Below, piece after piece: positions 5,527-29,854 of a DNA stretch of 43,866 nt. The stretch covers positions 24,187-68,052 of the forward strand of contig MU270044.1 of NCBI GenBank assembly GCA_021432635.1, written 5' to 3'. How positions within the stretch are numbered: the first letter of the stretch is position 1; the number at the start of each line of letters is the position of its first letter. A program made the position numbers and the translations under genes. Below the pieces are notes generated by a model. The model was not told the origin of the DNA. It did no database searches and saw only the letters and a list, made by a program, of their open reading frames with translations. This stretch comes from Thozetella sp. PMI_491 (Eukaryota > Ascomycota > Sordariomycetes > Chaetosphaeriales > Chaetosphaeriaceae).

Positions 5527-6450
5527 CTAGTTGATCATGGACTTGCCAATCTCGCTCTTCCAGTCCTTCGCCCTCTCAAAGCCATTCGAGTGCGTCTGGT
5601 AGTCCATGAATGCCTGGTAGACCTCCTCCTGGCTACTGAGCACAAACGGCCCATACTGCACCACCTTCTGGTCTAAGGGGGTGCCGGCAATAATCACGAA
5701 TCGCCCGTTCTTCTCGGCGCCGGCGTCCACGGCGGCGTGCACCACCTCGCCGTCGGCCTCGAAGACGACATTGTGGAACTGCTCAACTGGCTGCTGCTGG
5801 CCTTCGGGCCCGAATAAGGTCTGGCCCTCGAGCGTGTAGGCGAAGGCGTTCCAACCCTTGGGGAGCGGCTGTGCGATCTTGCCGCCGGGCTTGATCTCGA
5901 CGTCCAGGATCCATACTGGCGTGTATGCGAGGTCCCGGACGCTGTCGACGCCGTGGCTCTGCCCCGAGATCACCTTAACCGTCACCTTGCCGTCGTCGGC
6001 GGTGGCGATGGGGATCTCGCCGGCGCGCAGGTCGCGGTAACGAGGCTCCGTCATCTTCAGCTCCTTGGGCAGGTCAACCCACAGTTGCAGGCCGACATTA
6101 GCGCTGCCATCTGCGTTCTGGCGCGGCATCTCGGCATGCATCACGCCGCGACCTGCCGTCATGAACTGAAGATCACCAGAGTTGATGGTGCCCTTATTCC
6201 CAGCGAAGTCTTCATGATCGAAAGCGCCATTAAGCATATAAGTTATCGTCTCTTGGCCTCTATGGGGATGATAAAAAAAATTTGGGCCGTTGTCTTCAAA
6301 GGTCAATTCAGCAGATCCATTGATGCTAGCTAGGACTTTAGGCTCATTACCTATCTCCATTGTACCCTGAAGCATCCTCCTCTTTGTGCTTAGTCCGAAG
6401 CACCGGTAGATATCCTCAATACGGCCTCTCATCTTCCTCCACCCCTTCAT
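5527..6450 (-). pseudogene. pirin, 3' (C-terminal) fragment with foreign 5' sequence
   Basis: From 6270 downwards this encodes about 247 residues of a pirin-family cupin, beginning exactly at the HPHRGQETITYM motif. It continues through the GDLQFMTAGRG and HAEMP blocks to the full C-terminal cupin. The metal-ligand motifs HxH (HPH) and HxE (HAE) are both in this part. Pirins are iron-binding nuclear or cytosolic cupins, some with quercetinase activity. The ~90 residues that should precede HPHRG are missing here and lie 14.4 kb away at 20658-21071. Codons 1-60 of the open frame (6450-6271) are not pirin and come from the inserted island, yet they happen to be in frame. The ATG at 6450-6448 overlaps the TGA of the neighbouring island gene as ATGA. 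A truncated chimeric protein could be made, but normal pirin cannot. Confidence 0.88.
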
Positions 6451-8096
6451 ATAACAACACCTGGAGCCTCCTCCTCGGCCGAGAGCTTCTCCGCTTCTAT
6501 CGTCTCTATCATCTGGTGACAGGCTTGGCGCTCTTTCTCGAGCTGATCAACAATGCTAAGCATAGGGTGTCGTGCCTCAGTGATTAGACGCCTGCTGACA
6601 GCGAAAATATAGTCGCGGAGCTCATCAATATCCATTGAATCTCCTGGACCTCGGGTTCCTGCATCGAAATCTGTCGTTGGGATCCGCTGCAGCTGTTCCT
6701 CCTGGGCCTGAATCACGCCGCGAACAGCATCTGCCAATACTGTAAAACGATGTTCCGAATATTTGAGGGTTCGGATGGCTGCTGATTGAGCCATGGAAGC
6801 ATCATTCACCTGGTTACTGGCCTCTGAGACGGTGCTTAGCCGCACAACCGTCGTCGTGTAACGATGTGCTTCTCGAGCTCCGAACGCAGCATCTTTATTA
6901 TTCAGGACATGACCATCCTTGGTCCGGAATTCGGCCCACAGGAGGAAATGGGCGATAAAGATCGGCAGAGAGGCGATTTCAAGAGGTCTTTCGATACCGC
7001 ACTTCGTTTGCCTGAGCTCCGTAGCGAGAAGTCGGAGATGGTCCTCGCTGATGTCAATATCAAGGGCATGAATATCCTGTAAGACACGTTAGCTATCACA
7101 TTGTATTTGCGATATAGGCAAAAAGAGATCGCTATCAAAGCTCACCCTAAGTTCCTTCGCGGCTTGTTTCACGAGCTTGTCTCTGACGTTGGAGGTTCCA
7201 TTGATAAGATGGTCCAACGACTCCACGTCTTCTTCGTCTACTGCCATCAGTGTAGGAGTGATCGGCCTATTCTGGGGAAGGATGAAGCGCAGCTGAGCAT
7301 TATTCCCGGCCATCAACTCCAGGTCGGCTCCAAGAGTAATAAATGGTGCAAACTTATTCTCCGTGTCGTCTGGCAAGGTGGCCCGCTGGTTGACGCTACC
7401 GTCGGAAATCTTGGCAACCGCCTCAGGACGTTGCTCTTGGATCGTCATGGCATGATCCCTGATTGCCTCTCCCCATAATGTTGTCCGTTTCTTCGCAGAG
7501 GTGGCAATTTCGGAGGTCCATTCCTGGTAGTAAAACAGACGATTATCTTTCTCTGAAGGGAGGGCGGCGAGGCGACACAAGCCGTCTTGTTTGTCGATTA
7601 AAACATAGAAGTTGCTTTTTTTTTCAATGAGTCGCTTAACCACCAACAGGGTCCCTGGGATAGTATTGATATGTGAATATTTATCGACTGGGTGGGAAGT
7701 ACTGATCACTCCCTTGTCGGCTGGCTTCTGATTCCGTTTCTTCGTCTCCTCGTTAGCCGGCAGGAACTCACCGATCACCAGGACTAAATCGGTGGCTGGA
7801 GCATCATCTGTGGCAAGCTCCTCTGCACTCCAGCTTTTACCAGCACCGGCTTGATCTTCCCAGGACAGGGCGTCGACTTGGGTACCTCCCTTCCGATTAC
7901 TCCCTTGGCCGATCACATTCCGGACACGTATAATTTGCGACTGCTGGCGGTCTGCTTTCCCGACCCTGTATGTAGCCAACATCGGGTTGAATGCGAGGTC
8001 ATAATCGGCATTGGCAGCCATCTTGTCTCGAAAGCAGTCGTGGGTGATGCTTTGGTCTTCGATGGTGAGCTGGAGGTGATTGATCTTGGGCGGCAC
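6447..8096 (-). CDS. island gene 1: unknown protein, two exons
   Basis: Exon 1 runs 8096-7146 and exon 2 runs 7076-6447. The intron 7145-7077 has a GTGAGC donor, a GCTAAC branch point and a TTACAG acceptor, and frame is kept across it; about 526 codons result. The upstream edge is uncertain. Codon 8096 is GTG, preceded by a plausible 3' splice site (TCTCATCTCAG), so a 5' exon may be missing; the first internal ATG is at 8021. No domain is recognised. The middle (TIPGTLLVVKRL, FYVLIDKQDGL) looks globular. The C-terminal ~110 residues are helical and coiled-coil-like (EEQLQRIP, LRDYIFAVSRRL, IVDQLEKERQACHQMIETIEAE). It is divergently paired with the SNF2 gene. A broken homologue of its C-terminus lies at 36281-36625, so it belongs to a repeated family. 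Confidence 0.7.
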
Positions 8097-8851
8097 GACC
8101 TGAGATGAGATAGAAAGTCAGAATCATTTAGATTTCATGAATGGGGTGTGTGGTTAAAGGAGTTGCCTCTCATGATGTGGTGGTTTTTACTTAGAGACGA
8201 TGGAAAGGCTCGGCTGCAGGAAGGGCCTTAAGGATTAGGGTCCCGGGGGGAGGGACGGACTGGGTTGCTGAGAACAGGAAAGGTTGGTTGCGGAAGAGAA
8301 GGAAAGACTGCGTTGTTGGAAATGAGATGAAGCAAGTAAAAGATCAAATCAAAATTTTAGGCAGCCGGATGTAGTTCACTTCAACTTTAGTCCACTAGCT
8401 TTTCACATTCTACTCACCTGCACCAAGTGGGAACCGGCCTTGACGGCGTTGGCGAGCTTTGCGGTGCGTCTCCTTCAACTTCCCTCCAGCATTCGAGTAT
8501 CACATCAAAGCATCACCACCCTCCACCGCCTCGCTCACTAGAGGGGTTGCATCTTAATCCACGGAGTCTTCCATTCTTTTCCTCGCACAAAGCGTTAAGC
8601 CTCACCTCGACGCGCCTCGCAAAGCTTCCTGCTACCAAGCCTTCGACTCTCGCCCCCGAGTATCCTGATCCTTCACCGTCTCCTCGCCGAATGATTGCGC
8701 CTCAAATCAGTAAGTCTTCCACCGCTTTTTTCGCACAATGTGTTGAGTACCACCTTGGCGTAGCTTGATCTACTTCCCTCATTCGACCGTCACCTTGGCG
8801 CATCTCTCACCACCCTCTCTCCTAGCTGCCTCGCACCTCACCTCCGGCAAA
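8097..8851. promoter_or_regulatory. shared divergent promoter, island gene 1 / SNF2
   Basis: About 750 bp between the two divergent starts. It is pyrimidine-rich on the plus strand in the last 400 bases, as expected for a fungal 5' leader. A GTAAGT at about 8710 could be the donor of a 5'UTR intron of the SNF2 gene. The region may also hold an unassigned first exon of island gene 1 (see that entry). Confidence 0.4.
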
Positions 8852-11215
8852 ATGGCCGAGACCTTCCTGCCGCGCCTAGAAGAGCAGCTTAGAGCTTTAG
8901 AGAACACAGCTTGCTCAAGCATCACCCCTGACGCTGAAGAGCTCTCGTGTGCTCTTGAAGACATATTTAACAATTTACGGGCTGGCAAATTCGTCACTTC
9001 ATATTCCCTGCTTTGCAAGCGAAAATGGTCCAACAGTGGAGAGAAAAAACGGGCTCTCAGTGACACTGCTGAAATCCCAGCGAATAAGAGGCACAGTACC
9101 GATGGCAATATGAGCCAAGCCACCGAGCTTGAAGCCGCTGTCGCGACTGGCGAAGACACGCCCGAGCAGCTTCCTTCAGCTGACCTTGGGGATTCTTTTG
9201 TGATCTCGGGCAGACTGCAAGATATTGATAAGTTCTTTGCATCAAACGAGTTCCAACAGCACATGGTAAGCCCACTACTTGCTACAGGGTGAGTAATATC
9301 ACACAGCTAACTAAGGATGATCAAGGCCGCCCTCGACGATGAGACAGTTGCCCCCATACCGGATGATGCTATTAAGACGACTCTAAAGCCGTGGCAGGGA
9401 ACCGGCGCTACAAAACTCGTCCGACTTGGCAACTCCTTTCTAGGAGGTGGGATCCTTGGGGATAGGGTTGGAATGGGAAAGACCTTGACGAGCTTGCTAG
9501 CCGCCCTTGAGCTCCGACGACAGCTACCGAATCCTGGCTTCATCCTTATTGTCTGTCGACCAACGCTTGTCTTGCAGTGGTACGACGAGATTCACCGTCA
9601 TTTTCATGATGAAAGACGCCCCTTAACCATCATCCTCGACACTGCAAGATGTCTGGCGAGCACGTTACATTCGTATGACATTGTTATCTGCAGTAATTCC
9701 TTCCTGCGCTTAAGATACATAGAGCGCAGAGACTGGATCGATTATCACACAGCTTTGTTCTACGGCGGAACACAATTTGCCGAGCAGACTTACAATAAGA
9801 AGAAGAGCGAGATGAAGTTTCTCGCTTCTCCCCTATTCAGCCAGGCACAGTGCATGGCGCAGAAGGGAATCAGTGTGTTGCTGCTGGACGAAGCCCATGA
9901 TGCTCGAGGCTCCCATACCATCCTGAGCGAGGCTCTTCGCGCTCTCAATTACAAGTACGCCTTGCTTGTAACAGGCACTCCTATTATCAACACCTTCAAA
10001 GACTTCTATGGTTTGCTTGCCCTGCTTCCGGGGTGTCCATTCGTGAGTTTGGCACACTACATGAAGGTTATTGATCCCCAGGACGATGATGACGATGATG
10101 CTACAACCCATGAAAGTCGAAAGGCTAGGGCTAAGCAGATTTTCCACCAAATCAACAGAACCAGCACCCTTGCACGAAGTGGGAAGCTACTACAGCTTTC
10201 CCACCCGGTCATCCAGACAGTGGACGTCGATTTCAGGGATGAAGAGGCTCTCATAATGTCAATAGCACGACTTGTCCGCCTCGCCATGTTCATCCTTAAG
10301 AAAGCTAATGAGGGCGAGGCCAATAGGATAACCGGATTCATGCTGCTGGCGACCGCACAGAAAAAGGCTGCTAGCCCTCTTCTTCCGTCGCGAAGCCCAC
10401 AAGGAATAAGATTTGCTGACAATGACATGGACGACGAACAAATGGAAACCGCCCTAGAAAATGGCATCTTGGACGTTCAAGCTTGGCAGGAGTCTCAGAT
10501 GAATGATGAGTATGTGCCAACTGATTCCGAAACCGGCTCCGAGTCGGAGCCCGAGTCGGGCTCTGCCACAGGTGATAATAAGCCCGAAGGCAATGATGCT
10601 CGAGACTTCCCTCAGCCACGGGAGGCCAATGTCGAGATTGCCAAGAAATCGAATCGCAGCAATCCAAAGTATGCCCGAGAATGGCTTGAAAAACTGGCCA
10701 ATGCTACCGATGCGGCCGTTCTTTCTCCCCGCGTCGTCGCAATCATATCCACAGCCAGAAAGATCACCGCAGAGCACCCAGAGGACAAGATCGTCATTGT
10801 CTCGCAGTCGCACATGTTTCTGGACGTGATACTCGAGGGGCTACGTCGACAACTAAAACCTATGCCACGAGTTGCAGAGTATAATGGCACAGTACCCAAG
10901 GATAAGCGGCCCCAGATACAGCGCGACTTTAACTACAACGCATCCGGCTCGAAAATTCTCCTCCTTACGGAGGCCACAGGAGGCGCAGGCCTGAACCTTC
11001 ACGGGGGAAATCACATCATCCTTGCGGAGCCATTTCCGACACCGGGACAGCTGGCGCAAGTCATAGGTCGTGTGGATCGCCTAGGGCAGATGAAGACTGT
11101 CTACATCTACAAGGTGCAGTCACCTTTGTCGGCCGTCGACAAATATTATATCTCAAAAATGGAAGAAAAGTTGGAGTTCTCAAATGAGAATCGTCAAGTG
11201 GTGCTTCGCCACTAA
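8852..11215 (+). CDS. island gene 2: SNF2-family helicase-like ATPase
   Basis: Exons 8852-9265 and 9326-11215. The intron (GTAAGC donor, CTAAC branch point, CAAG acceptor) joins the frame in phase 0 and gives 767 aa. The ATPase lobes are readable: motif I GDRVGMGKT (residues 183-191), motif II DEAH (326-329), motif III LVTGTP (about 353-358) and the C-terminal lobe ending in QVIGRVDRLGQ (716-726), the arginine-finger motif VI. Motif I has DRVGMGKT instead of the usual DEMGLGKT. An acidic, Ser/Glu-rich insert of about 60 residues (around NDEYVPTDSETGSESEPE) separates the lobes. SNF2 proteins use ATP to translocate on DNA and remodel chromatin or displace bound proteins. No RING, chromo or bromo domain is visible. 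The reading frame looks intact. A degenerate copy of its middle lies at 22150-22450. Confidence 0.88.
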
Positions 11216-11372
11216 TTTAGGGATCATCGGCCGCTAACGATCATGCCTGGGCTTCTGAGAGGACAGCGATAGCTAGCAAGTTGCTTGAGAATCTTAGATC
11301 TACTCATTAGAATGGACGAGGTAGCAATCCCAATTTTGAGAAGTTATGATAAACTTGTTCGTATTGTCCCAT

Positions 11373-11388
11373 CCCCCCCCCCCCCCCC
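11373..11388. repeat. C16 homopolymer
   Basis: An uninterrupted run of 16 C in the short convergent gap (11216-11474) between the SNF2 and GIY-YIG genes. Length is likely unstable or prone to sequencing error. Confidence 0.8.
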
Positions 11389-11474
11389 ACCATTCCCCGT
11401 GTACCATCGAACTGAAGTTAGTATATTAATGAATCATGCGAAGCTCCAATGAGCAGATAATCGTCAAAGCTGAC

Positions 11475-13161
11475 CTACTTGGCGTTCGCCCTCTTCGCCC
11501 TCTTTATCTCACGATACTTCCTCACCCGCTCTCTCGACTTCCTTTTCTCCCACTCGACCATAATGTTTCTCAGATGCTCAGGGAGGGCGTCAACCTCTGC
11601 CTTTCGTTTGGCTTTGGTTTCCTTCTGTTTCTCGAATCTCTGGGCCTTCTTGTCTGGAGGGAGGGCATGGTATCGATCCTTTGCCTTGTCGCGTACATGA
11701 TCTTTACCTTCCTTTGGCATAGCAGCATACTTGGCTACCTCATGTTCGCGTTTCTGCTTCCGTCTATTCTCCTTCTTGTGTTTAGGCATCTCTGCGTACT
11801 TCTGTCGATCGGATGTCCGTTTCTTCTCCTTTTCAGCCTCAGGAAGAAGAGCCCACTTCTCGCGGAGAGCAGCATTGAATGCGTCTTTCTCTTCGTTGGT
11901 CATTGCAGCAGCCTGCTCACGTCTAGCCGCCCGAGCATCCTCCTTCTCGGTCTCCGTCAGGCGAGCCCACTTCGAACGCTTCTTTGCTCTAGCAACTTCC
12001 TTTTGTGCTTCGGTCCTCGATTGCCGTCTCACACGTCGCATTGAAATGATCTCTTTCTTCTTCTCGGGTGAAAACCCACTCCATTCGGTCCCCCTGTACT
12101 TCCTTGGCACACAGATGAACTCGTTGATTGCGTGATGAGAGCAGCATCCCCACCAGTATGTTTGTTGTTCCTTCATGTAGTGCGAACCAAGGATTTCGGC
12201 GAATAAGGTCTCTGCGAGAAGGCAGAGCAGCCGCAGATGGACAAGGAAGGATGAATCTGCGACATCGAGCAGCGGTACCAGCATGAAGACACTCCACTGC
12301 TGGCCCCGTTTGCACTTCTTGCTGTGCATGAGATTGTGGAAGAGATTAGGTCTTAGCACAGCGTGTTAGGTATGCCAACGATGATTCTTGACGTAGGAAA
12401 GACAAGACTTACTCTGTTTTGACGACGGTGGGCTTCTGATGCTGCTTCTTTCTGCCGGAAAGGCCAGCGACCATGTTGGTTGCACTCCCGACGTAGGAAT
12501 GGTTGTGAGCTTTGGCGTCCGGCAAGACATGAGCCGTAGGGTCGGAAAACAAGGGCCTGAGTAAACAGCCGTAGACACCCCATTCTATGGTGTCAACCCA
12601 TGGAACACTTGACCAGTTAGGTGGGGTATCGGGTCGAATGTTGAGTAGGAACTGCTTAGCCTGCTCCGGCACATATTGCTCAATGACCATGGCCCAATCG
12701 ATGGACTTATAGGCCGAAAGGATTGCTCTCGGGCATTGACCTATCTGACCATCATCTTCACTGAGAAGCTCGTCGAGTTTCCGAGCAAGGAGCTTGGCAA
12801 ATTCCGACGGAGGACCAGTAGACACCAGGGGCCGCGGCTTCAGCAGATCTGCCACTGCTAAGAACTTCTCCGCCAAGGATCGATCCTTGATGGGCTCCAG
12901 GAGTACTTCAAGTCCAGAGATGTACCTCTGAACAAGACTCTCGAGTCGCGTGGCTTCTTTGGGGCTGCGCCGGTTGACGATACCTAGCACGGCGTAGAGA
13001 TCGTCGTCGGTGGCGTCGAGGCCAATGACTTGTTCACCTTCCGATATTTCGTCTTCAGAGGTGAAACCATCATTCTCGGCACTTGAAATGGGTGAACTTT
13101 CGTCTTCGGAGCTGGAGCTAGGAGAAAATTCTTCATCGTTGGCGAAGCGAGGACGCTTCAT
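11475..13161 (-). CDS. island gene 3: GIY-YIG-type nuclease with Lys-rich repeat tail
   Basis: Exon 1 is 13161-12413 and exon 2 is 12351-11475. The intron (GTAAGT donor, CCTAAC branch, TAAG acceptor) keeps frame through a split Glu codon and gives 541 aa. The N-terminal ~60 residues are Ser/Glu/Asp-rich. A GIY-YIG core is readable: GVY at 195-197, YVGSATN at 223-229, Arg237 within GLSGRKKQH and candidate catalytic Glu297 in LLAETLF. Spacing and motifs fit the GIY-YIG endonuclease fold, in which these Tyr, Arg and Glu residues act in metal-dependent DNA cleavage. From about residue 340 on, the protein is a run of basic, helical repeats of the type (K)WALLPEAEKE / YAAMPKEGKD / YHALPPDKKA, probably a DNA- or RNA-binding tail. 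It is divergent to the PHD gene. It is a candidate DNA-cutting enzyme of the island. Confidence 0.75.
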
Positions 13162-14042
13162 GATAGGTGATGATGAGGATCAACGGGACACTTGGGAACA
13201 AATAGATTGGATCTGGGCAGTGAGGGTAATGATTGAGAAGACTGATTTGAGTGCTCTCGATGCCACAAGGTAGGATTTGCTGGATGTGAACGAAGGAGAC
13301 AAAGTGCCTATTGAATGGGAAGGAATTTGGAGCGCACAGAAAGGTATTCGACGGGCGACATGTTGAGGAGGAAGGTGCGAGTATGCTCCTTCCCCTGCCG
13401 AGTAGCCTGGGAAGTCCGCACTCCATACCGGCACCACCGCCCGCGAGGGCGCGCGTGCACTCGATGGAGGTGCTGGCAACTTTGCGATTGTCAAGGCCAA
13501 GTAGTGAGAGAGCACGCGTTTGGTGAAGATGAAAGAAAAAAGCAACCTTGGTACCTGTCAACTTTCTATCCGGCCATAAATTTCTTGTGAATCGAGTTGG
13601 CCTTTTTTTTTTGACGCCTGGCAGGTTGACTCAAATTCAACCCGCCGTGCTGCGATTCAACTCACCTCACCACATGCCACTCACCTTGCCGCAACCCACT
13701 CACCTTGCCGCAACCCACTCACCTTGCCGCAAACCACTCACATTCATGCATTATATTCGTCCCAAGGGCTCTTTCTCTCTCTCCTGTGGTCCGCGTAAGA
13801 TTATGCTCCCCCTGCCGCACCTCGGAGTGTGATTACCTTGCCTACCCAGTCAAGCCGGACGCAACTACCTTACCCTTCTCTTCTCAGCATCATTCGTTGG
13901 AACTGCGCGCCCGGCCGCTGCATGCCATCTGCCCAGTCTCAGAAACTACGAAGGGTTTTCTTATCAACCCTGCAGCTTCATCCTTCCTGCCGACTACAGA
14001 TTCCAAAGCCGACAAACGTCTCGATCACTCACCTTTCCCATC
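13162..14042. promoter_or_regulatory. shared divergent promoter, GIY-YIG / PHD genes
   Basis: About 880 bp between divergent starts. It contains a T9 tract near 13603-13611 and a three-copy 19-bp tandem repeat (listed separately). Short frames here have no coding character. The last 200 bases upstream of 14043 are CT-rich, like a 5' leader. Confidence 0.45.
13679..13735 (+). repeat. 19-bp tandem repeat, three copies
   Basis: The unit ACTCACCTTGCCGCAACCC is repeated head to tail three times (the last with AAACC for AACCC), preceded by a degenerate copy (CTCACCTCACCACATGCC). It lies about 310 bp upstream of the PHD gene start and could be promoter-proximal binding sites or a simple minisatellite. 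Confidence 0.85.
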
Positions 14043-15754
14043 ATGGACGGTCAGATTCAAGGCAAAGCTCACAATATCGCCTGGAAGCGTCGAGGCTTGA
14101 ACGAACACCTGGTCGACGAAATGATTGAAGCCAATTTAGCCCAGTGCAACGATGAATACAAGCCCCGCCAGAACCTCGCGCCGAGAAAGAAACACCTTCC
14201 GAGAACCCCAGTAAATGACGAGGCGTCTCAGAAGGGTGAGGACGATGCTCCAGAGCCGTGTAAAAAGAGAGCCAAATCAGTGCATGAAAACTCCGCGAGC
14301 CTCCCGCCAGCCAAGAAAAGATCTGTAAGTACTAGACATAGAGGCTAAACCGATTAATTAAATACTGACAACTCTGCTGTACAGAAAACGCTCGAGCGTG
14401 AGGCTCGCTTCACTGGAACATATCCTAACTTCGAGGAGTTTGGCGTGGACAACGATGCTGGCAGTGGTTCAGGGGGAGCATATGAGCCTGACGATGGCAA
14501 TCTCTCCGAGGCGCAAGACTCGGACGGAGACTACGACGATGCAATCTCGATGGACTCTCTCGTTACCCCTAGCGAGACGGAGGCTTTGGGCTGCTTGATT
14601 GATACAGATACACAGGAAGAAGGAAAACTACCGATGAATGACAACCAATATGAGCCATCGGACGAGTCTCTTAGCATGATGCTTAACAGCAGCGATAGAG
14701 AGGAAAGCAGCGCTGCAGGTAGCGACAGTGAGGATGATACTGACCCTCGGACTCTCATAAATGCGATGTTTCTTCAGCTCGACAGCGCGGACGAGCATGC
14801 CACCGGAGAGATTGACCCGAACCTGGAGGCTTTGCCATCTACGAACAGCACCAAAAGAGGCAATCAAGAGGGCGATCTTCCAATCGACGAGAAGCAAACC
14901 TTCAACTGCATTTGTGGAGAGGACATCGTTGAGATGTCCGATCTCGTGCGCTGTAACTCATGCGGGGTATGGCAGCACCCTCAATGCGTGGGATTCGATC
15001 GCGACAATTCGGAGTGTAAATTCTTCTGCGAGAATTGTCGTAACCGAGAAGTCACAGATAATTCTCCACGCGACAATGAACGCAGAAATGTCTTCATATT
15101 CAACTGTCCTTGCAACGAACGCTGTGTTCATCCGGAAGACCTTGTGCGCTGTCAGTCGTGCGGAATATGGCAACATGCGGCCTGCCATGACATGGACAAC
15201 GAAGATTCTAAAAAGTCGGGATCCATTTTCTTCTGCGAAAAATGCCAACATAAGCGCAACCAAGAGCAACAGGATAATGCTTCGGCCAGTTATGGAAGCG
15301 ACGATGTCATTGCCTGCCCTTGTGGAGACGATGACAAGGATGCCCATATGATACAATGCGATAATTGCAGAGAGTGGCAGCATACCGAGTGCGCAGGCTT
15401 GGAAGTTGAGACAGCTGAACACCCAGACTTCCGGTTCTTCTGCCTGTGTTGCATAAAACGAGGGGCCGCGCCTCCAGAGTTCCGCATACCCAGCTACCCC
15501 AAGGTGAGGCTATATTATCTCACTCGATTCGGGCGGAAACGGACTTTTACTAACTTCTACAGGTGAACAAGATGCCTACAAGCCAGGAGGATGATGGGCC
15601 ACAGACTTGGACAAGGGAAGAGATTTTCTTCCTGGTGAACAGCAAGTACGAAGATCCAGAGACCTTTTCCCGGAAATTTGGCTTGATTGGAGCGGATATG
15701 AAGGAGAAAAAAGCTACGCTGAAGGCCGTGATGGAGGCGACGAAGAAGGTCTGA
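14043..15754 (+). CDS. island gene 4: protein with three PHD-like zinc fingers
   Basis: Exons 14043-14324, 14385-15503 and 15563-15754. Both introns have consensus GT donors (GTAAGT, GTGAGG), near-consensus branch points and ACAG acceptors, and join in phase 0 to give 530 aa. The N-terminal ~260 residues are basic, then acidic and Ser-rich, with no recognised fold. Three consecutive C4HC3-type fingers follow: CICGEDIVEMSDLVRCNSCG with WQHPQC; CPCNERCVHPEDLVRCQSCG with WQHAAC; and CPCGDDDKDAHMIQCDNC with WQHTEC. Each has the hallmark Trp two residues before the His-x-x-Cys pair. PHD fingers of this class read the N-terminal tail of histone H3, often methylated Lys4. Three in tandem with such similar sequence suggest internal duplication. 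The last exon adds a charged C-terminal helix. It converges with the H3-variant gene. Confidence 0.85.
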
Positions 15755-16164
15755 TTTCAATTGTCCCTTAAATAGCTGTCTCTGCCTTTAAATGGCTAGG
15801 GCGATGCCATCTCAGCAAATTGCTACGTAGTATTTATTTGCTGCATCTTGGCGGGAATAGCCACCTGAAGAATCTTCCTTACAGGAACCCGTCCCATAGG
15901 TCCCGCAGGACATTGCGGGATGCCCCCCATTTCCTGCGGGAAACGGGGGAATTCCCGCGTGGGTTCCCGCGGGACTGCGTGAAAAAGTTGGTCGATGACA
16001 ATATATGAGGTATTTCATGTTTAAAAGCAGTAGATAGGGCGGAATAGGCTTTGGGATTTGGCATCTAAGGCTGTTTGACGTGCGAGGTTAAAGCTACTCA
16101 AGTTATAACCTAATCGTTTCCATGCCCTTGTCCCAAGAAAATACGCTTATGTTACCAGGGTATC
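15755..16164. other. convergent 3' region between PHD and H3-variant genes
   Basis: No gene. It contains the GCGGGA/TCCCGC cluster (15901-15974) listed separately. It may mark the seam between the left and right parts of the island, because the 23-bp motif starts just to its right and is absent to its left. Confidence 0.45.
15901..15974. repeat. GCGGGA/TCCCGC repeat cluster, hAT-like subterminal region
   Basis: Six copies of GCGGGA in either orientation occur within 74 bases: 15901-15906, 15915-15920, 15936-15941, 15953-15958, 15965-15970 and 15969-15974. The last two form the palindrome TCCCGCGGGA. Dense short GC-rich repeats of this kind are typical of subterminal transposase-binding regions of hAT elements. 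With the BED finger at 20.3 kb this hints at a hAT-type component. No complete terminal repeat was identified. Confidence 0.5.
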
Positions 16165-17077
16165 TCATGTAAATTCCATATCAGAGCTGGCTCGCTATAA
16201 ACTGGTTATTACAATGTTTATTACATAGCTAGAACAGTGATGACTTACTACTACTCTGTCTGGGCTTGCCGGGACTCCTTGGGTTACAGGGGCTGCCGAG
16301 GCTGTCGGGGCTACTGGGACTGTTACGGGATTCTTTTTGAAGTAGTCGGTTACCCGGCCGTTGACCATATACTTATCGTAGTTTGGTAGAAGATGCGGGT
16401 TGATGCTGGCTCCTTGAATCAAGATACGGCTAACAAGGTGGAAATCTTTCACCATCATGGTGATTCGCCCGCCATGAATGGTGGCGAGGTACGACACTAG
16501 ATTTGGTTATTACAATGTTTATTACACGGTAGGATAACTCTACTTACTCTCGAAGAAGCGTGTCAGGTACTGCTCTGCTGCCTCCTGGAGCGCGCCTAAA
16601 GCTGAAGCCTGCATACGGAAGGGCTGGCATGCCTTGTCATGTACGATCTCACGAACCAGACGGCTAAATGCCGCTTTAGGGATGAGCAGCTTGGTCGATT
16701 TCTGGTAACACCGGATCTCTTTAAGAGCTTTGGCTGAGATATTTTAATATTAGGGATAAATGTAGAGCATATGGCAAATATGACTTACTGCCTGGCTTAT
16801 AGCGGCGTTTCTTGCCGATCTTGCGGTTACCACCAACCGTGATAGCCGTCTTGGTAGTACTCTTTGCACTTCGAGGTCCTGTCGATACAGGTTTCTTTCT
16901 AGCAGGACCTTTACCAGTAGTCGGCCCCTTGCTAGCAGGCTTCTTACCAGCAGGCTTCTTACCAGCAGGCTTCTTACTAGTAGGCTTCTTACCAGCAGGC
17001 CCCTTGCTAGCATGCCCCTTGCTGGCAGGCCCCTTCCCACCAACGCTCTTGCGAGCAACATGCTTTGCAGTGGCCAT
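16165..17077 (-). CDS. island gene 5: divergent histone H3 variant
   Basis: Four exons (17077-16789, 16733-16548, 16496-16249, 16194-16165) encode 250 aa. All junctions have GTAAGT donors and AG acceptors and preserve frame. The N-terminus matches the H3 tail: [17 protein letters not shown] keeps the equivalents of K4, R8, K9, S10 and K14. The tail is then expanded to ~96 residues by repeats such as PAGKK and ASKGP. The histone fold follows: RRYKPGT (91-97), then [16 protein letters not shown], then FSRLVREI, then [13 protein letters not shown] and finally [19 protein letters not shown] (165-183). The loop after REI is one residue longer than in canonical H3, and [12 protein letters not shown] recalls CENP-A more than H3. 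Beyond the fold is a unique ~65-residue extension. No stop or frame break is seen. It is divergent to the orphan gene, with a 5'UTR intron at 17136-17078. Confidence 0.88.
16203..16225 (-). repeat. 23-bp double motif, copy 1 (H3v intron 3)
   Basis: On the minus strand it reads TGTAATAAACA, T, TGTAATAACCA. It lies near the 3' end of the 54-nt intron 16248-16195, in sense orientation to the histone gene. Confidence 0.95.
16504..16526 (-). repeat. 23-bp double motif, copy 2 (H3v intron 2)
   Basis: Identical to copy 1, located in the 51-nt intron 16547-16497 in sense orientation. Confidence 0.95.
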
Positions 17078-17083
17078 CTGACT

Positions 17084-17106
17084 TGGTTATTACATTGTTT
17101 ATCACC
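17084..17106 (-). repeat. 23-bp double motif, copy 3 (H3v 5'UTR intron)
   Basis: Reads GTGATAAACA, A, TGTAATAACCA in sense with the histone gene. It ends six bases before the acceptor CAG that directly abuts the ATG. The deduced intron is 17136-17078. Confidence 0.9.
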
Positions 17107-17137
17107 GCTGGGGCATGTTTTTCAAATTTGACTTACC

Positions 17138-17573
17138 GTGTCAGACTGAGGAGGACCTGGACTAGCCTCTAGGGAAGAAGGTGCGACCAGCAAGGGCTAT
17201 GATACCGTCTAGGTAGGTAAACTAGCTTCGCGAGGTCGAAAATATGCGTAAAGTGGAAGCGCGACGAGAATAGGCGATGCGATCGTTGGTTGTATCGCTA
17301 AGGAAGGAGTGATCAATTGAGCGCAGGTGAAAAATCGCTGATTTTTCCGGCGCGAAGCTGCATGAAGGGCTGTTTAGCTCGTTTTTCTCAATTTTTTCAA
17401 CTTCCACTTTACAACGAACGCATTTACGAGTGCCAGCGCCGCTTGTAATCCTTAGTTTTGAGGGTCGGATTTTCACATTTTGCCAAATCGGATTGGATTT
17501 TTACGCTGACGACGTCACCAGATTTTTTCGCCAGACTTTTTCTCGCCAGATTTTCACCCGTCCTCCACACAAA
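17138..17573. promoter_or_regulatory. bidirectional promoter of H3 variant and orphan gene
   Basis: About 435 bp between the two divergent 5' exons. It carries several T-rich runs, a palindromic AAATCGCTGATTTTTCC area and CGCCAGA-T(n) repeats near 17515-17550. Each flank leads into a 5'UTR intron whose acceptor adjoins the ATG and which contains the 23-bp motif. The mirror-like arrangement suggests coordinated expression of the pair. Confidence 0.55.
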
Positions 17574-17605
17574 GTAAGCCTAAACTATACTCTTGTGATA
17601 ATATC

Positions 17606-17628
17606 TGTAATAACTAATGTAACAAACA
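17606..17628 (+). repeat. 23-bp double motif, copy 4 (orphan 5'UTR intron)
   Basis: Variant copy: TGTAATAACTA, A, TGTAACAAACA. It ends three bases before the acceptor AG that abuts the ATG at 17632. The deduced intron is 17574-17631 with a GTAAGC donor. Confidence 0.85.
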
Positions 17629-17631
17629 TAG

Positions 17632-19630
17632 ATGGCGGGTAAGAGAAAGTCTCCTGAGGAGCTTAGCCAAAACCCGAGCACCAAACGAGTACGGGCCCGC
17701 CAAGCACGTATGAACGACAACGAGCGTACCGTCCAGCGTGCTACCTCCGCGCTGAATACAGCCATTTCACGAGCGCGGAAGATATGTAGAGATACGGATG
17801 AGTGGAAGCTAGCAAATGACGATGCTCGTAAGCAGCTTGAAGAGGCTGCGAAGCAAGCTACGATCAGCCAGAGGTAAGTCCGCCTCTGTCATGCCTTATG
17901 TAATAAACAATGTAATAACCATCTGCAGTTACGTGCTCAAGAAGCACCCCGATCAAGTCCGCGCGTTCCTGGGCATGATTGATAGCCCCACCGATCCTGG
18001 CGCCCTAGGTGAGGACCAGTTCCTCAGCCCAGAGGAATGGGAGCGTACCAATCCCGACGAGTACGAAAGATATAGCCTGCTTGCAGAAAAACAAGATCGG
18101 ATCCGGGTTTTTGGTTTTGAGGGCGGCATTCCGTATATCCTACAAACACTGGTTGATTCACCCGCCCTACGAGGGAGCGATTCGGATACGAAGTGGTTTC
18201 TCGCTTTAGCCCGGGTATGTAACTACACTTTTTCTAGTGTAAATTCCATACTAACACAGTATTTAGGCGATCCAGGACCATGCTAGAGATTGTGATCGCA
18301 ACATCGAGGATCTGGGCCTCAGTGCCGCGCCGAACACCGCCCCTCTAGCTAGAGTCACTAGACAGATCATTTCGAAGCTTCGTGAGCTTCTAGCTTTGCG
18401 CCCAAGTGTGGCAGCGATGCAGGCAGATATGAAAAGCCAGCAGCAAGAGGTAACTTACTTCACTGGTTATTACACTGTTTATTACATGGTAGTTCACTAA
18501 TAATACAATAGAAGATGCAACTTCAGCTCCATACTGCCTGGCGCGACGTCTGGATCAACGCAATCCGTACGATGGGTGTTAAGTTACGACTCCTAGAGAC
18601 TCATCCCAGCCGCGTTAAAGTGGGATGGGAAGTATTATGCTTCCTAGAGTCACACACGCTATTCGTGAGCGCCTTTTACCCGCCTTGCCCCCGGCTTGTC
18701 AACCTTGAGTAAGTTTGTTATATTCTTATGCTTATGATAGACTAATTATCTATTAGGAAACGAGTCGGAAAGCCATTCCGGTTTAAAGAGGTCGTATCGA
18801 TGCGCCAGGTCTTCGATCACACGACTGGGTGGTGGTCCCGCCTGCCTGGTAATCCACCTGCGCCAAATGGTATATTCGGGAAAATCTTTTCTGCCGATCT
18901 ATGCTACCCTCCACTCCCTTCGGCATATTGCCTTTTTTCCGACAACGAATGGGCTGTATACCGCTGCCTTGCAAGCCTGCCAGGAGACGTGGCTTGTTAT
19001 CTTACCGCAGGTGGTAAGCAATACCGCCAGAATTGCCTCAAGTATGTAAACGATGATCGTTGTAATAAGCAGTGTAATAACCAGTCTAGGAATCGCGTCA
19101 TGGCTCTCAAACACAGACCTGCCTTGCGCTGGGTGCGAGTCAAGCGCAGGGTTGTATCGTGGGGACTCCGGCGTTACAATCTCTTTTCTACTATGCGCCT
19201 GATTCGAGGAATGTCGGATGGAGACTGGATCGATCTCCCTGGCCCAGCAGCTATGTGGGAAGGTGTCGACGAGCGTATCTTCCACGAAAACACTCCGATC
19301 GCTCGTATCGATGCCGATAAGCCTAGTGTTGAGCAATACGAGCAGGCAATCCGACTGCTGCTTCGCCCAGCTGCTACAGGTGCGTATGATCCGATGGCTA
19401 GCTACGTCGTCCTGCCCTGGGATCATCCGGCCAGCTCTTTCGCCTATATAACCAACGACGAACGCCTGGCATCATCAGATTTAGCTACCGTCAAAGACCG
19501 CGGTATGCTAGGCCAGTGGGTAAGCCGGAACTACGACCCGGTTTCTTTTGCTATGGACGCCTCAGCTAGCAAGGGCAGCGACAAGCATAAAGCTCAATGC
19601 AAGGGCAAGGGAAAGGGCAAGGTTTTGTAG
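17632..19630 (+). CDS. island gene 6: orphan protein paired with H3 variant
   Basis: Six exons: 17632-17873, 17929-18214, 18267-18449, 18512-18708, 18757-19041 and 19090-19630. All five introns are 48-62 nt with clean GT/AG and preserved frame, giving 577 aa. No known domain is recognised. The N-terminus is basic with a likely nuclear signal (KRVRARQAR). Residues ~35-150 are helical and charged. The C-terminal half is rich in Trp, Tyr and Pro (WWSRLPGNPPAPNG, WDHPASSFAYI), suggesting a compact domain. The last 20 residues are a Lys/Gly tail (KGKGKGKVL). There is no frame damage. Three of its five coding introns plus its 5'UTR intron (introns 1, 3 and 5, and the leader) were checked against the 23-bp motif and contain it. 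Its head-to-head pairing with the H3 variant suggests a joint function, possibly as chaperone, loader or replication factor; that is inference only. Confidence 0.8.
17899..17921 (+). repeat. 23-bp double motif, copy 5 (orphan intron 1)
   Basis: TGTAATAAACA, A, TGTAATAACCA in the 55-nt intron 17874-17928, ending seven bases before the next exon. Confidence 0.95.
18464..18486 (-). repeat. 23-bp double motif, copy 6 (orphan intron 3, reversed)
   Basis: The only clearly antisense copy relative to its host gene: the minus strand reads TGTAATAAACA, G, TGTAATAACCA. It lies in the 62-nt intron 18450-18511. Confidence 0.95.
19061..19083 (+). repeat. 23-bp double motif, copy 7 (orphan intron 5)
   Basis: TGTAATAAGCA, G, TGTAATAACCA in the 48-nt intron 19042-19089. 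It occupies almost half of the intron and ends six bases before the exon. Confidence 0.95.
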
Positions 19631-19947
19631 CTTAGTAACTATGGATCAACGAGCTGGTACATAATGGTTATGAGCTAAATTCTATTCATTTCATGAAGTA
19701 TCCTTTCTATGAGCTTCATATCCTGCACTAAAAGCGTCTTCCGTTTCGCATGTAAAGCATATAAAAGGCTCGCTAGATATGATTAATATGGGAGACACAA
19801 TACATACCACTAAAGAGACGTGTCAGACGAGCCTCGGCCATCTATATTATCTCCGCAACTGCCTCGCTCTGTACTCAGAATCTAGGCTTGATCTGGTGGA
19901 TAAGCTCTACCAATAGCCTTCAGAAAGCAGCTTTTGGTAGGATTGGC
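19631..19947. other. 3' region of orphan gene, AT-rich
   Basis: No gene or conserved element recognised. It is AT-richer than the flanking host DNA. Confidence 0.4.
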
Positions 19948-20217
19948 TTAGTAGATTCTAAGAGCTTCCTCTCTATATTCCAACGTGACCCTAGATTCGA
20001 TTAGTGAATATAAGTGATGTAATAAATATTGTAATAAACACTTATTTATTGTCTTCTGAGCTTTTGCCTTGGAAACAGTACTCATAGGAATCTTCCTAGG
20101 AGTGGAAGCCTGAGCTGAGTGATAGGAGATCGAGGAGTTTACAATAATAATCTTCTTTTTTATTGTTTGCTTATTATTGTGGGGGGTTGAGGGTGTTGGT
20201 TTACAGCAACCTTCCAT
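19948..20217 (-). CDS. small AT-rich frame, possible relic or small gene
   Basis: An 89-codon frame from an ATG at 20217, with a basic stretch (STVSKAKAQKT) in its middle. A 51-nt in-frame interval within it starts GTGTTT, contains the 23-bp motif in antisense, has CTAAT near its end and finishes in CTAG, so it may be an intron. Splicing would leave 72 residues. There is no homology call. It could equally be non-coding island DNA. Confidence 0.22.
   Translation of the reverse strand: MEGCCKPTPSTPHNNKQTIKKKIIIVNSSISYHSAQASTPRKIPMSTVSKAKAQKTINKCLLQYLLHHLYSLIESRVTLEYREEALRIY
20018..20040 (+). repeat. 23-bp double motif, copy 8
   Basis: TGTAATAAATA, T, TGTAATAAACA. It is inside a possible 51-nt intron of a small minus-strand frame, antisense to it. 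Confidence 0.85.
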
Positions 20218-20255
20218 CTACAGAAAAGAAGGAAACTGCCTCTAGGGCATGGACC

Positions 20256-20657
20256 TAGTCCTATTGGAAGACTGATCTGTGGGAGACTTGGTACCCTTGT
20301 GCGGACCGGGTATCTGGAAAACAAATGGTACTTTGCAAACGCTGTAACTTCGCACTACAAAATCCGTCATTCTCATATAACGGTACTTCCGGCATGACCA
20401 AGCACCTTGCTTCGGTACGTTGCACGCAGACCGTCTATAGTGGCCAGCATGTAACGGCGCAGGTCCGGGCCGGCACTGGTCGGCAGGCTGTAAATAATAC
20501 CGTTATATTTATGTAATAAACATTGTAACAACCACTTTCGAGATGATGGAGCTGAGAGATTCCTACCCTGACATGGGACAAGGTAACTCGGGAGCGGGAG
20601 CTTATCCGTATGTTAGCCAGTATCAGAAGAGGCTTTTATATCATTCAAAACGATACT
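20256..20657 (+). pseudogene. truncated BED-type zinc-finger gene (hAT-like N-terminus)
   Basis: The frame around 20256-20500 encodes a Trp followed by CKRC, then YNGTSGMTKHLASVRC. This matches the BED finger pattern CxxC...H(x5)C and the NGTSxMxKHL segment typical of hAT transposase N-termini. A weak intron candidate (GTAAATAAT to CTTTCGAG or a later AG) containing motif copy 9 follows. Further open coding-like sequence (WDKVTRERELIRM...) then runs until pirin sequence begins at 20658. No catalytic transposase domain is present, so this is either a stand-alone BED protein cut by the boundary or the remnant of a hAT element. Confidence 0.55.
20512..20534 (+). repeat. 23-bp double motif, copy 9
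   Basis: TGTAATAAACA, T, TGTAACAACCA. It follows the BED-finger frame and lies in a possible intron of it. Confidence 0.9.
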
Positions 20658-21071
20658 GCCAGCGCCCGGCTTGACACTGAAGTGGTCGAGCATTAAGAAG
20701 GGGGAGAAGTTGCGGAGCTGCGGGGTGCCGATGGAGCGGCGTACGCGCGCACCCATGCCCTCAGACTGCTCTACAGCGAGGAAAACCTTGCGGATGGCAC
20801 GAGGAACCGACATATTGGTGACGATGAGGTGTGTATCCGGGGGGATGTCGAGTTTGTGTGAAGTTAGGAAGGGGTCGGCGTCAGACGTGGAAGCCTCCTG
20901 GGGTGAGACTGAGGACGCGGTGCCGGTAGTAGCGGTAAAGGTGTTTATTATACTGGCCTTCTCAAGGAGAAGCGATGCTGTATAAGTAGCGAGGTCGAGA
21001 ATGTGCTGTTTGAACAGAACCGTAGAGCCGATGCCGATGATGATGGCGAGTAGAATCGAGAAACGCTTCAT
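20658..21071 (-). pseudogene. pirin, 5' (N-terminal) fragment
   Basis: From the ATG at 21071 the frame encodes a short hydrophobic, signal-anchor-like segment (MKRFSILLAIIIGIG) and a Ser/Thr-rich linker. The diagnostic pirin N-terminus follows: RKVFLAVEQSEGMGARVRRS, then GTPQLRNFSPFLMLDHF and SVKPGAG, where homology stops at 20658. In intact pirins the next residues are FPDHPHRG; HPHRG is found 14.4 kb downstream at 6270. The open frame continues into island sequence for 15 codons to a stop at 20613. The usual soluble pirin may start at the internal ATG of MSVPRAIRKVF (about 20811). No damage is seen within this part, so the split looks recent. Confidence 0.88.
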
Positions 21072-22149
21072 TGAGCAGATGCGGTCAGAAGCGACACTAC
21101 TTATACAGGACCAGGAATGACTGGAGAACGAGGGAAAGATGCCCATCGAATGCCGGCTTGGTCGTTAGAAATATCTTGGAGCTTCTCCCCGCCTCCACCT
21201 GCGAGTCGTGCCGGGTGTTATGCACTCTTATGCGATGCTTACGAATACCGCTTAGCCTACGAGCTTTTCCACGGGTACACTTGCGGCTCTTCTTTTTGTA
21301 ATCCGGGTGGATACAAAATTTGAAGGCCAATAAATCTGAAAAGTCTCGGCATAAAGGTGGGTCGATTGATCAGGTAAGCCCTTTATCTACAGTTAAACAT
21401 ACTAGCTGAGTACCTGTAGTGGTCTTATAGTAAGCGTTGACATAGCCGATCCCGGACCAATCAGAAGCTAGTCATTTGGGTTTGGTGCGATATTTTGTGG
21501 TTTGTCAACGCTTGGCGATGCTTTGACAGCCCCTTCGAGCCACTTTGCCCTTGATATCCTCAGCCTTTGCATCTGTTACGTCATACTACCAGAGCCTCGC
21601 AAGACTGAAAGTTTCGGAAACTTCAGCGACGCTCAAGCAGCACCCATTTGTAATTCCGTCAAAACTGGCATCCTCAGTGTCATTGCAGCGAGAGACTGAG
21701 GCGGGAGTCTACCTTGCTGGTGCGAATATGTGCATAGGGAATTGCAAGTGTCATCTCAATACAGGCCCTTTCATAATGGGCCAAATAGGCCAACGAGCCA
21801 AATGGTCCGTTTACTAGCTTTTAGGCCTTCAAATCTGGCCGGCCTCTCTCGTTCCAGGCCAATAGATATATAGTGGATAGGCTGCAAGGATGCGGATATG
21901 GATCTGGATGGGTACGGGTCTCGAAAGGCATTTCCCGGTCTGGACGGATGTGCCTAATGATTGGCCACAACTCGGCTAGAGGTTACACCTCGCTGGGCTG
22001 TGGATCGTGCACTAAGACTGAGGTTACGCAAGGTAATTCCGACTTTAAGTCATCCCAATCCATCTCCGGGCTATCTAAGGGCGACTGCCGTTTCCTCTGC
22101 AGAAACGACCAAGAGTAAGGACTCGCCAGGTCAGATGTCAGATTTTCGA
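21072..22149. other. pirin upstream region
   Basis: Presumed promoter of the disrupted pirin gene. A GGCC-containing inverted-repeat patch lies near 21780-21860 (AATAGGCC, AACGAGCC, CTGGCCGGCC). No gene is recognised. Confidence 0.4.
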
Positions 22150-22450
22150 ATGAAGAAGTGCAGGATGATCGAAGCACCCATAGCATTTTAAGTGAGGCTC
22201 TTCGCGCTCTTCCTTACATATATACCTTACTCGTTACTGACGCCTCTATTCCAAACACCTTTTCTGAGTTCTACGGGGTTCTTGCCCTGCTTCTTGGGTG
22301 CCCCTTTCAGAGCTGTGAACCCGTCATGGAAGCTTTTGGCACTCGGGGCCAGGGATGGCGATGCGGCGCAAAGGATACTTAGGAGGAAAAGGTGAAACAT
22401 ATCTTCCAACAAATAAACAGAGCAAGCACTCCTGCCCGGAGAGGTGTTGG
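22150..22450 (+). pseudogene. degenerate fragment of the island SNF2 gene
   Basis: Translation gives HSILSEALRALPYIYTLLVT, then NTFSEFYGVLALLLGCPF. After a TAG stop at 22380-22382 comes KHIFQQINRASTPARRG. These align one-to-one with island gene 2: HTILSEALRALNYKYALLVT, NTFKDFYGLLALLPGCPF and KQIFHQINRTSTLARSG. The DEAH Walker B is lost (the equivalent segment reads EVQDDRSTHS), the TGTP motif is changed to TDAS, and the flanks no longer match. It is a relic of a second, older copy just outside the island. Confidence 0.85.
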
Positions 22451-28650: not shown

Positions 28651-29854
28651 CCCAAGAGCAGCGCTTCATTTGGGGCCTAGTAGTCTCACACGGCGTTCGT
28701 GCGGGTTGGTGTTTACTCACGTGCGTTTCTCTTGTCTGGCTTACGTGCGAAGCGTGCATTATAGACACTGGCGATTTCTCGGTTTGGCGTTGGGAACGAG
28801 AACAGGGCGCGAGGGGGACGAACAAACATCTTCATCCGGTGGGATCGGTCCATTCATTCATCACAGACAGGCGTTCTGATGTCGTTCGTTTGCGCATCAT
28901 GTTAGCGGGTTCGGCAGTTCGGATTTACGTAGAGGCGATACCCGTGTACGATTAGAAAGCTTTGCACATCCTTCAGAGAGGGCACGCGGGGGACGTGGGA
29001 TGGGATCGGGAAATACGAGAGGCATTGGGCAACCGGGCCGGCGTGTTGGGTAATCTCTAATATGGACCCTCGTTCGCATCCATAGAGATAGATGGCGTCA
29101 CTCATTATTTCTTCTTGGCAAGATTGCGCCAATAAAAAGACAGCGGCATCCTCATGGTGTTGATCACGAATCAATAGGTTTCACCAGGCGTTCCTTGAAG
29201 TGATTCAGGGCCAATTGAGAGTGCTTAAAATGTTGGGAATAGTTAATTGTAAGTGAGTAGCTGAGGGAGTGCTAGCAAGCAGCCCTTATAAGGGATTGTA
29301 CAGTGGTCTCACAGCGCGTGCTTTCCAGGGCCGGTTTCATCCCATTTGACAACTATAGTCTGTGGCCAGGACTAGTGACGCGCAAGATATCTCGAGCGAG
29401 GAGATTGAATCAAACACGGCGTGAGGGATGTGGAATGAGTTCTTCGAAGGGCAGGGCAACTAGGGGAGCCAGAGCCATGAGGGGCCGGGAGCATGGGAAG
29501 GCGTTGGAAGCTACATGTTTGGCGTGACGGAGACAGGGGACTATTGGTATCCAGAGAAGCATCCACCGGCGTAGGGCTTTGGGAGGTGTGCTTGGAAAAT
29601 GGGCTGGCATTCTGAACATCATCACTTGTGGGTTAAGCGAATCATCATAATACCACTACCAGAATTTACTCTAAACTTGACACTAGAGGTTCCTGCTCAT
29701 GAAGTTTTCGGAGATAGCTTAATCCAAACGTTTAAACCTTAAGCACCCAACTTCCACCGAAATTTTTCAGAATTTTTTTCCACCGAACACACATCCTCCC
29801 AAGATCTTTCTTTCCTACCAACTGCCACTTATCACTACAACAACGAAGTTTGCG
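28651..29854. other. intergenic
   Basis: No gene recognised. The last ~200 bases before 29855 are A/T- and CT-rich and contain T-tracts, as expected for the promoter and leader of the HNH gene. Confidence 0.45.

What the first reader, a model, noticed from the sequence alone, without database searches (positions are those of the whole stretch)
16165..17077. Divergent histone H3 variant carried by the inserted island
The four-exon product has a complete H3 fold framework ([34 protein letters not shown]...KDF) and an H3-like tail start. It also has a long repetitive tail, a loop one residue longer than canonical H3, some CENP-A-like choices ([22 protein letters not shown]) and a C-terminal extension absent from known H3 classes. 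Histone genes as mobile-element cargo are very unusual. A selfish element that brings its own nucleosome component could mark its own chromatin, evade silencing or influence centromere identity.
Basis: partly seen in the sequence, partly recalled or inferred. Interest (0 to 1): 0.93.

Follow-up and report, generated by a model that had tools for sequence, protein, structure and literature searches.

The report
Transposon-linked divergent fungal histone H3
A fungus carries, inside a block of DNA that split one of its own genes, an intact but strongly altered copy of the DNA-packaging protein histone H3, in a setting that resembles histone-carrying jumping genes reported from other fungi.

Summary
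The minus strand encodes a spliced H3 variant (H3v), identical to the deposited 250-aa protein P0001 of Thozetella sp. PMI_491. The H3 fold is complete, loop 1 is one residue longer, the tail has pentapeptide repeats, and there is a ~60-aa C-terminal extension. H3v keeps 33 of 36 near-invariant H3 positions. A standard CenH3 lies elsewhere (C112).

H3v lies in a ~14.4-kb block that splits the only close pirin gene found. The block looks like two units by dinucleotide composition. The 15.9-20.6 kb unit holds H3v, a divergent orphan gene (577 aa), a decayed second H3 copy, a sub-threshold BED-finger match, and 8 of 12 genomic copies of an intron motif.

Best reading: an eroded hAT-type transposon carrying an H3-like gene, as published for Pyrenophora tritici-repentis and Pseudocercospora fijiensis. 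So histone H3 as transposon cargo is not new. New here: an intact, apparently single-copy, intron-bearing, highly diverged version in a sordariomycete. TIRs, target-site duplication and transposase were not found, so hAT membership is unproven. Function is inference.

The parts
16165..17077 (-). H3 variant gene (H3v): coding exons 17077-16789, 16733-16548, 16496-16249 and last exon 16194-16165 (deposited model) or 16201-16181 (alternative acceptor)
17078..17136 (-). likely 5'UTR intron of H3v with the motif (2 mismatches), ending immediately before the ATG
16875..17072 (-). 15-bp tandem repeats coding for the lysine/proline pentapeptide tail
17632..19630 (+). divergently transcribed orphan gene, 6 coding exons, 577 aa, no relatives found
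17574..17631 (+). likely 5'UTR intron of the orphan gene with a degenerate motif (4 mismatches), ending directly before the ATG
19794..20085 (-). decayed second H3v-like copy with in-frame stops; motif copy at 20018-20040
15884..16096 (.). GCGGGA-rich repeat, possible transposon end; one other genomic relative (C43:309964-310175, 71%)
20319..20414 (+). BED-finger-like stretch, possible N-terminus of a lost hAT transposase; below Pfam's cut-off
16203..20534 (.). eight copies of TGTAATAAACANTGTAATAACCA (at most 3 mismatches)
6273..20657 (.). inserted block between the two halves of the pirin gene
20658..21071 (-). host pirin gene, N-terminal part
5527..6272 (-). host pirin gene, C-terminal part

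Best explanation
H3v is a protein-coding, strongly diverged H3 variant, more likely non-centromeric. It sits in the remnant of an H3-carrying DNA transposon, most likely of the hAT kind known from Pyrenophora and Pseudocercospora. Shown: an intact spliced H3 fold that keeps nearly all near-invariant positions; an H3-type tail start with K4/K9/K14-like sites; a tail expanded by pentapeptide repeats; a divergently transcribed partner gene; a decayed second H3 copy; an intron motif shared by these genes and almost nowhere else in the genome; a block that disrupts pirin. Inferred: an H3 transcript or retrocopy was captured by the transposon (the intron at RLV or RVV, seen in the host's three other H3-type genes, is missing), later gained the private introns, and diverged while still selected to pair with H4. 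Inferred and untested: the protein enters nucleosomes with host H4, and its altered tail marks or de-represses the element's chromatin.
For: Fold: PF00125 E=1.6e-29. AlphaFold shows helices at 97-108, 116-130, 139-166 and 174-188; pLDDT block means are 77-95 for residues 121-180. Constraint: 33 of 36 columns shared by at least 28 of 29 other chosen H3-type proteins are kept, 43 of 47 at the looser cut of 26 of 29. H113, R116, D123 and L126 equivalents are retained (their role in the H3-H3 contact is recalled). Host H3 and CenH3 lie at C21 and C112. Insertion: the pirin halves are the only close pirin pieces found (next best 42%); joined with three X they align to the solved pirin 1j1l without a gap at the junction, where FPD stands. 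Unit: 7 of 10 introns of the two genes carry the motif; 8 of 12 genomic copies lie here, control pattern 0. TpA/ApT is 0.86-1.33 in five stretches of 15.9-20.5 kb, 0.55-0.59 in four of 6.3-15.8 kb, 0.75-0.77 in the host stretches and pirin. Precedent: the Ptr element has a hAT transposase, an ORF of unknown function and H3L with tail insertions, matching neither H3 nor CenH3 (PMC3538342 section 20 part 1); Pfi elements carry 1-2 H3 copies captured without introns (PMC6710886).
Against: No shared or inverted exact 9-mer at the junctions except one unrelated one, and no partner in 20.18-20.68 kb for the possible end at 15.9 kb. No hAT dimerization domain in the window (24 genomic matches, none here). 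The BED match is below cut-off (16.7 bits against 20.6). The GCGGGA-rich end has one 71% relative not shown to be a hAT. Only one intact copy was seen. No sequence of the published H3L or its partner ORF was available to compare. Dinucleotide values just right of pirin (0.87) overlap those of the H3 unit. Codon differences between tail repeat units are more often nonsynonymous (61) than synonymous (14; all pairs of 8 units, not independent). No transcript data. H3v is a long branch of unresolved position: forced union with ascomycete H3 p=0.044, with fungal CenH3 0.08, with Bisporella plus ascomycete H3 0.30, with the C4 gene 0.18.
Confidence: 0.5

Rival explanations
1. A lineage-specific host H3 variant with no transposon history: an old H3 duplicate in a fast-evolving chromosome-end region that later collected transposon debris.
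For: Another diverged H3-type gene exists at C4:1581316-1581735 and keeps the host intron at RLV; its union with H3v is not rejected (p=0.18). The transposon features beside H3v are weak. The window starts 24 kb from a contig end.
Against: The block interrupts pirin. H3v lacks the RLV/RVV intron seen in the three other H3-type genes. The intron motif is almost confined to the unit.
Confidence: 0.25
2. A decaying captured H3 copy: drifted, no longer made or used, intact by chance or recency.
For: A second copy beside it is decayed. Long branch. The captured H3 copies in P. fijiensis are dead (PMC6710886).
Against: All exons are open with usable splice sites. 33 of 36 near-invariant positions are kept while 52 of 97 core columns match host H3, which plain drift would hardly give. 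The divergent partner gene is open over 577 codons.
Confidence: 0.15
3. A centromeric H3: the host's CenH3 or a second one.
For: Longer loop 1. The first tree puts H3v in a group of 12 rows with the CENP-A and CenH3 proteins (86/87, open fork). Best PDB match is an H3/CENP-A chimera, by a narrow margin over H3. Union with fungal CenH3 is not rejected (p=0.08).
Against: A standard fungal CenH3 is at C112 and groups with Penicillium CenH3 (98/96). The second tree, without two very long rows, does not group H3v with CenH3. H3v has an H3-type tail start and lacks the RWQ of the fungal CenH3 rows.
Confidence: 0.05
4. Viral histone H3 brought in by an integrated virus.
For: Some giant viruses encode histones (recalled).
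Against: No relative in viral contigs for the H3v/Bisporella profile, the SNF2 protein or the orphan (pattern-based scans). No viral hallmark among the Pfam hits to the 14 window-derived proteins or parts scanned.
Confidence: 0.03

Closest known systems
H3L-carrying hAT element of Pyrenophora tritici-repentis (Manning et al. 2013, PMC3538342; passages and section 20 part 1 of 2 read)
   Same: H3-like gene with N-terminal tail insertions matching neither H3 nor CenH3; partner ORF of unknown function; mostly intact coding copies
   Different: There about 5.6 kb with TIRs and a full hAT transposase (plus a 2.3-kb form), 26 near-identical copies; here one intact copy, no TIR or transposase found, introns with a private motif, C-terminal extension. 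Sequences were not compared
H3-capturing hAT of Pseudocercospora fijiensis and relatives (Dhillon et al. 2019, PMC6710886; outline with abstract, passages and results part 1 of 2 read)
   Same: One or two H3-like copies per element; the ancestral H3 introns are absent from the captured copy
   Different: There 784 copies, inactivated by RIP, full elements ~9.5 kb; here the main copy is open and has new introns
Histone-fold protein P0088 of Bisporella sp. PMI_857 (Leotiomycetes, Helotiales)
   Same: 54% identity; alone among the 30 tree rows shares HLV with H3v, and shares LLIPKA with it and one thrips row
   Different: 143 aa, short tail; pairing with H3v unsupported (27/2) and absent from the second tree; its genomic setting could not be seen
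Introner-like elements of fungi (PMC4457414: start of abstract in listing and two passages; PMC9860276: passages)
   Same: Near-identical sequence shared by several introns
   Different: Confined to one locus and a few other places, not genome-wide

Membership tests
Histone H3 family | Core histone fold with H3 signature positions | tested here: met
   PF00125 E=1.6e-29; 33 of 36 near-invariant columns; helices in the model
CenH3/CENP-A | Groups with fungal CenH3 in a tree | tested here: inconclusive
   Outside the fungal CenH3 clade in both trees, but in a loose group with CENP-A rows in the first (86/87, open); forced union p=0.08
CenH3/CENP-A | Is the genome's only CenH3 candidate | tested here: not met
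   A standard CenH3 lies at C112
CenH3/CENP-A | Centromere location of the protein | not testable with these tools
   Needs ChIP
[quoted passage not shown]
   Only one unrelated exact 9-mer shared by the junction regions; no partner end near 20.2-20.7 kb. Repeats under 9 bp, inexact ones or a lost right end are not excluded
hAT transposon carrying H3 | hAT transposase (dimerization domain) | tested here: not met
   PF05699: 24 matches in the genome, none in the window
hAT transposon carrying H3 | BED finger at the transposase N-terminus | tested here: inconclusive
   zf-BED E=0.0074, 16.7 bits against a cut-off of 20.6
hAT transposon carrying H3 | H3-like gene plus an ORF of unknown function and/or a second H3 copy in one unit | tested here: met
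   compared
hAT transposon carrying H3 | Multiple copies in the genome | tested here: not met
   Only the intact copy and the decayed neighbour seen
Starship giant transposon | Tyrosine-recombinase captain gene | tested here: inconclusive
   No such Pfam match in the 14 window-derived proteins or parts scanned; not every frame of the block was scanned
Introner-like elements | Near-identical introns in several genes | tested here: met
   Shared motif in 7 of 10 introns of two genes; the rest of each intron is not alike
Introner-like elements | Spread through many genes of the genome | tested here: not met
   12 motif copies genome-wide at up to 3 mismatches, 8 of them here

The most novel reading that the evidence does not exclude
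An old lineage of DNA transposons in Pezizomycotina carries its own H3 variant together with a divergently transcribed partner gene as core machinery rather than as accidental cargo. The element-coded H3, with its expanded tail, builds distinctive nucleosomes on the element that resist silencing, and the partner protein acts with it. The intact, constrained H3v and open orphan gene would be a sordariomycete branch of this lineage, marked by its private introns. (The authors of PMC3538342 already asked whether H3L could alter chromatin; the lineage idea and the selected, remodelled H3 are what would be new.)
Probability: 0.2. Interest if true: 0.85.

Novelty: new variant of a known kind. Interest (0 to 1): 0.52.

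Why it matters
Published transposon-borne H3 genes in fungi were described as captured copies, dead in P. fijiensis and of uncertain use in P. tritici-repentis. An intact, strongly remodelled H3 that keeps its structural core in another fungal class would suggest recurrent or ancient use of H3 by DNA transposons. It gives a testable case of a selfish element supplying its own nucleosome part. It also offers a natural experiment in how far an H3 tail and loop 1 can change.

Tried and rejected
Ordinary host CenH3: disfavoured, since a standard CenH3 lies on C112. Viral origin: no relatives in viral contigs. Whole block as one transposon: no repeats at the junctions, different dinucleotide values of the two parts. 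RIP: composite index weakly positive for the H3 gene (0.11) and the BED stretch (0.36), negative for the decayed copy (-0.31); not used as an argument. One hAT-bearing stretch at C20 was read for the end motifs of the 15.9-kb stretch; none of five short patterns was there. The last protein search, with a two-sequence profile (only the 8000 candidates sharing most words were scored, the best 120 listed), was dominated by long H3-containing proteins, some with two H3 domains, and showed no closer kin than P0088. The orphan search (7999 candidates scored, no hit at E<=0.001) did not even return a deposited model of the gene. The SNF2-PHD part of the block (6.3-15.8 kb) was not resolved; fragments of its genes lie at 22.15 and 36.4 kb and on C50. 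Comparison of the model with PDB folds could not be run.

Rows chosen: the tree used 30 rows: 26 of the 202 proteins listed (H3v as P0001 among them), half of P0195, and three proteins of the host genome. The second tree left out the two longest rows. Of 36 or 47 conserved columns the yardstick was 29 chosen proteins. Papers: a third paper that holds all terms (PMC4994206) was not read; one search showed 15 of 29.

Full report
What is there. The window is contig C30:24187-68052 of a 72.3-Mb genome in 157 contigs. A deposited protein identical to the spliced H3 gene product names the organism as Thozetella sp. PMI_491, and its contig length, 865,238, equals that of C30. Thozetella is a sordariomycete of the order Chaetosphaeriales. 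On the minus strand, exons 17077-16789, 16733-16548, 16496-16249 and 16194-16165 give this 250-aa protein; another acceptor gives 247 aa. Pfam Histone matches at E=1.6e-29. An AlphaFold model built on 30 chosen H3-type proteins shows the histone-fold helices. Confidence is good only in the core (pLDDT block means 77-95 for residues 121-180, 62-70 for the first helix, 59.3 over the whole chain); the tail and C-terminal extension are low.

What kind of H3. Against the host's canonical H3, 52 of 97 core columns are identical, with one extra residue in loop 1. Of 36 columns shared by at least 28 of 29 other H3-type proteins, 33 are kept. The tail begins [14 protein letters not shown], an H3-type start with K4, K9 and K14 equivalents. 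A run of pentapeptides follows from 15-bp repeats, then ARKKPVSTG, which resembles the K27 region (residue naming by eye). The genome also encodes canonical H3 (C21), a standard CenH3 (C112) and another diverged H3-type gene (C4). Read by eye from the frames, each of these three has an intron at RLV or RVV; H3v has none there. Trees of 30 and 28 rows place H3v on a long branch outside both the ascomycete H3 pair and the fungal CenH3 clade. In the first tree it falls in a loose group of 12 rows that includes CENP-A and CenH3 proteins (86/87, open fork); in the second it stands beside a Toxocara protein (90/49) away from them. Forced unions: ascomycete H3 p=0.044; fungal CenH3 p=0.08; Bisporella plus ascomycete H3 p=0.30; the C4 gene p=0.18. 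The pair with Bisporella P0088 has support 27/2. Its origin within H3 is therefore open.

The surroundings. The pirin gene of this fungus is in two co-oriented pieces at 21071-20658 and 6272-5527. They are the only close pirin matches (the next is 42% identical). Joined with three X they align to the solved pirin 1j1l without a gap at the junction, where FPD stands. The intervening ~14.4 kb is therefore best read as an insertion, but among exact 9-mers the two junction regions share only one unrelated one. The block is not uniform. In four stretches from 6.3 to 15.8 kb (an SNF2 helicase gene, a three-PHD-finger gene and unassigned frames) TpA/ApT is 0.55-0.59. In five stretches from 15.9 to 20.5 kb it is 0.86-1.33. 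In pirin and the outer host stretches it is 0.75-0.77, but 0.87 just right of pirin.

The H3 unit. Between 15.9 and 20.6 kb lie: a GCGGGA-rich stretch with one 71% relative in the genome; H3v; a divergently transcribed six-exon orphan gene of 577 aa without relatives among the 7999 candidates scored from 5.8 billion proteins, in viral contigs, or elsewhere in the genome; a decayed H3 copy that scores 92 against H3v, 60 against host H3 and 52 against CenH3 (best of 500 shuffles against H3v: 45); and a BED-finger-like stretch below Pfam's cut-off. Seven of the ten introns of the two genes carry the motif TGTAATAAACANTGTAATAACCA with at most four mismatches (2000 random 55-mers: never fewer than six). 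Six of the seven are forward, ending 1-7 bases before the intron's end, and one is reversed; three introns and the PHD-gene intron lack it. With up to three mismatches the genome has 12 copies, eight here and four elsewhere, and none for the reversed control pattern. In the two of those four that I read (C23, C19) the motif lies next to a copia-like sequence near contig ends (copia by eye).

Comparison with what is known. Two papers describe H3-like genes inside fungal hAT transposons. In P. tritici-repentis a ~5.6-kb element carries a hAT transposase, an ORF of unknown function and H3L, whose tail has insertions and which matches neither H3 nor CenH3; ESTs of H3L were seen (PMC3538342, passages and section 20 part 1). 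In P. fijiensis, ~9.5-kb elements carry one or two captured, intronless H3 copies, all inactivated by RIP except the original gene (PMC6710886, abstract, passages and results part 1). The unit here has similar ingredients (an H3-like gene, an ORF of unknown function, a second H3 copy), so I read it as an eroded relative or a parallel case. The defining hAT features were not met or not conclusive here, and no sequences were compared. In the listings of six searches of the paper library I saw no other report of a transposon-borne H3 in fungi, with Sordariomycetes as a term, returned none. PMC4994206, listed, was not read.

Mechanism. Shown: coding capacity, fold, constraint on core positions, setting. 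Inferred: capture through a transcript, private intron gain, pairing with host H4 (the H113, R116 and D123 equivalents are kept; their role is recalled), and a local chromatin effect through the enlarged lysine-rich tail. The last is a hypothesis without test.

Noticed in passing
window 16203-20534; C23:1254, C19:1044428, C14:1248268, C121:12635: An intron motif is shared by introns of two genes and by four other places in the genome; in the two read (C23, C19) a 40-nt GT..AG stretch made of it looks like an intron by itself.
   Followed up: partly
C4:1581316-1581735 (L019, L052): Another strongly diverged H3-type gene of the host (133 aa as spliced by eye) with the host H3 intron position.
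   Followed up: partly
window 6273-15765: SNF2 helicase, three-PHD-finger protein and several unassigned frames form the other part of the inserted block, with a distinct dinucleotide signature.
   Followed up: partly
window 22149-22445 and 36365-36627: Decayed fragments related to the SNF2 gene and to the frame at 6447-7088 lie elsewhere in the window, so genes of the left part have other local relatives.
   Followed up: partly
window 29723-31204: Open frame with an HNH_2 endonuclease match in a second low-GC stretch.
   Followed up: no
L006 370-1080 and the end of L009: A contig-end stretch codes a lysine/glycine-rich KAKAKGKGK protein next to a copia-like sequence (by eye).
   Followed up: no
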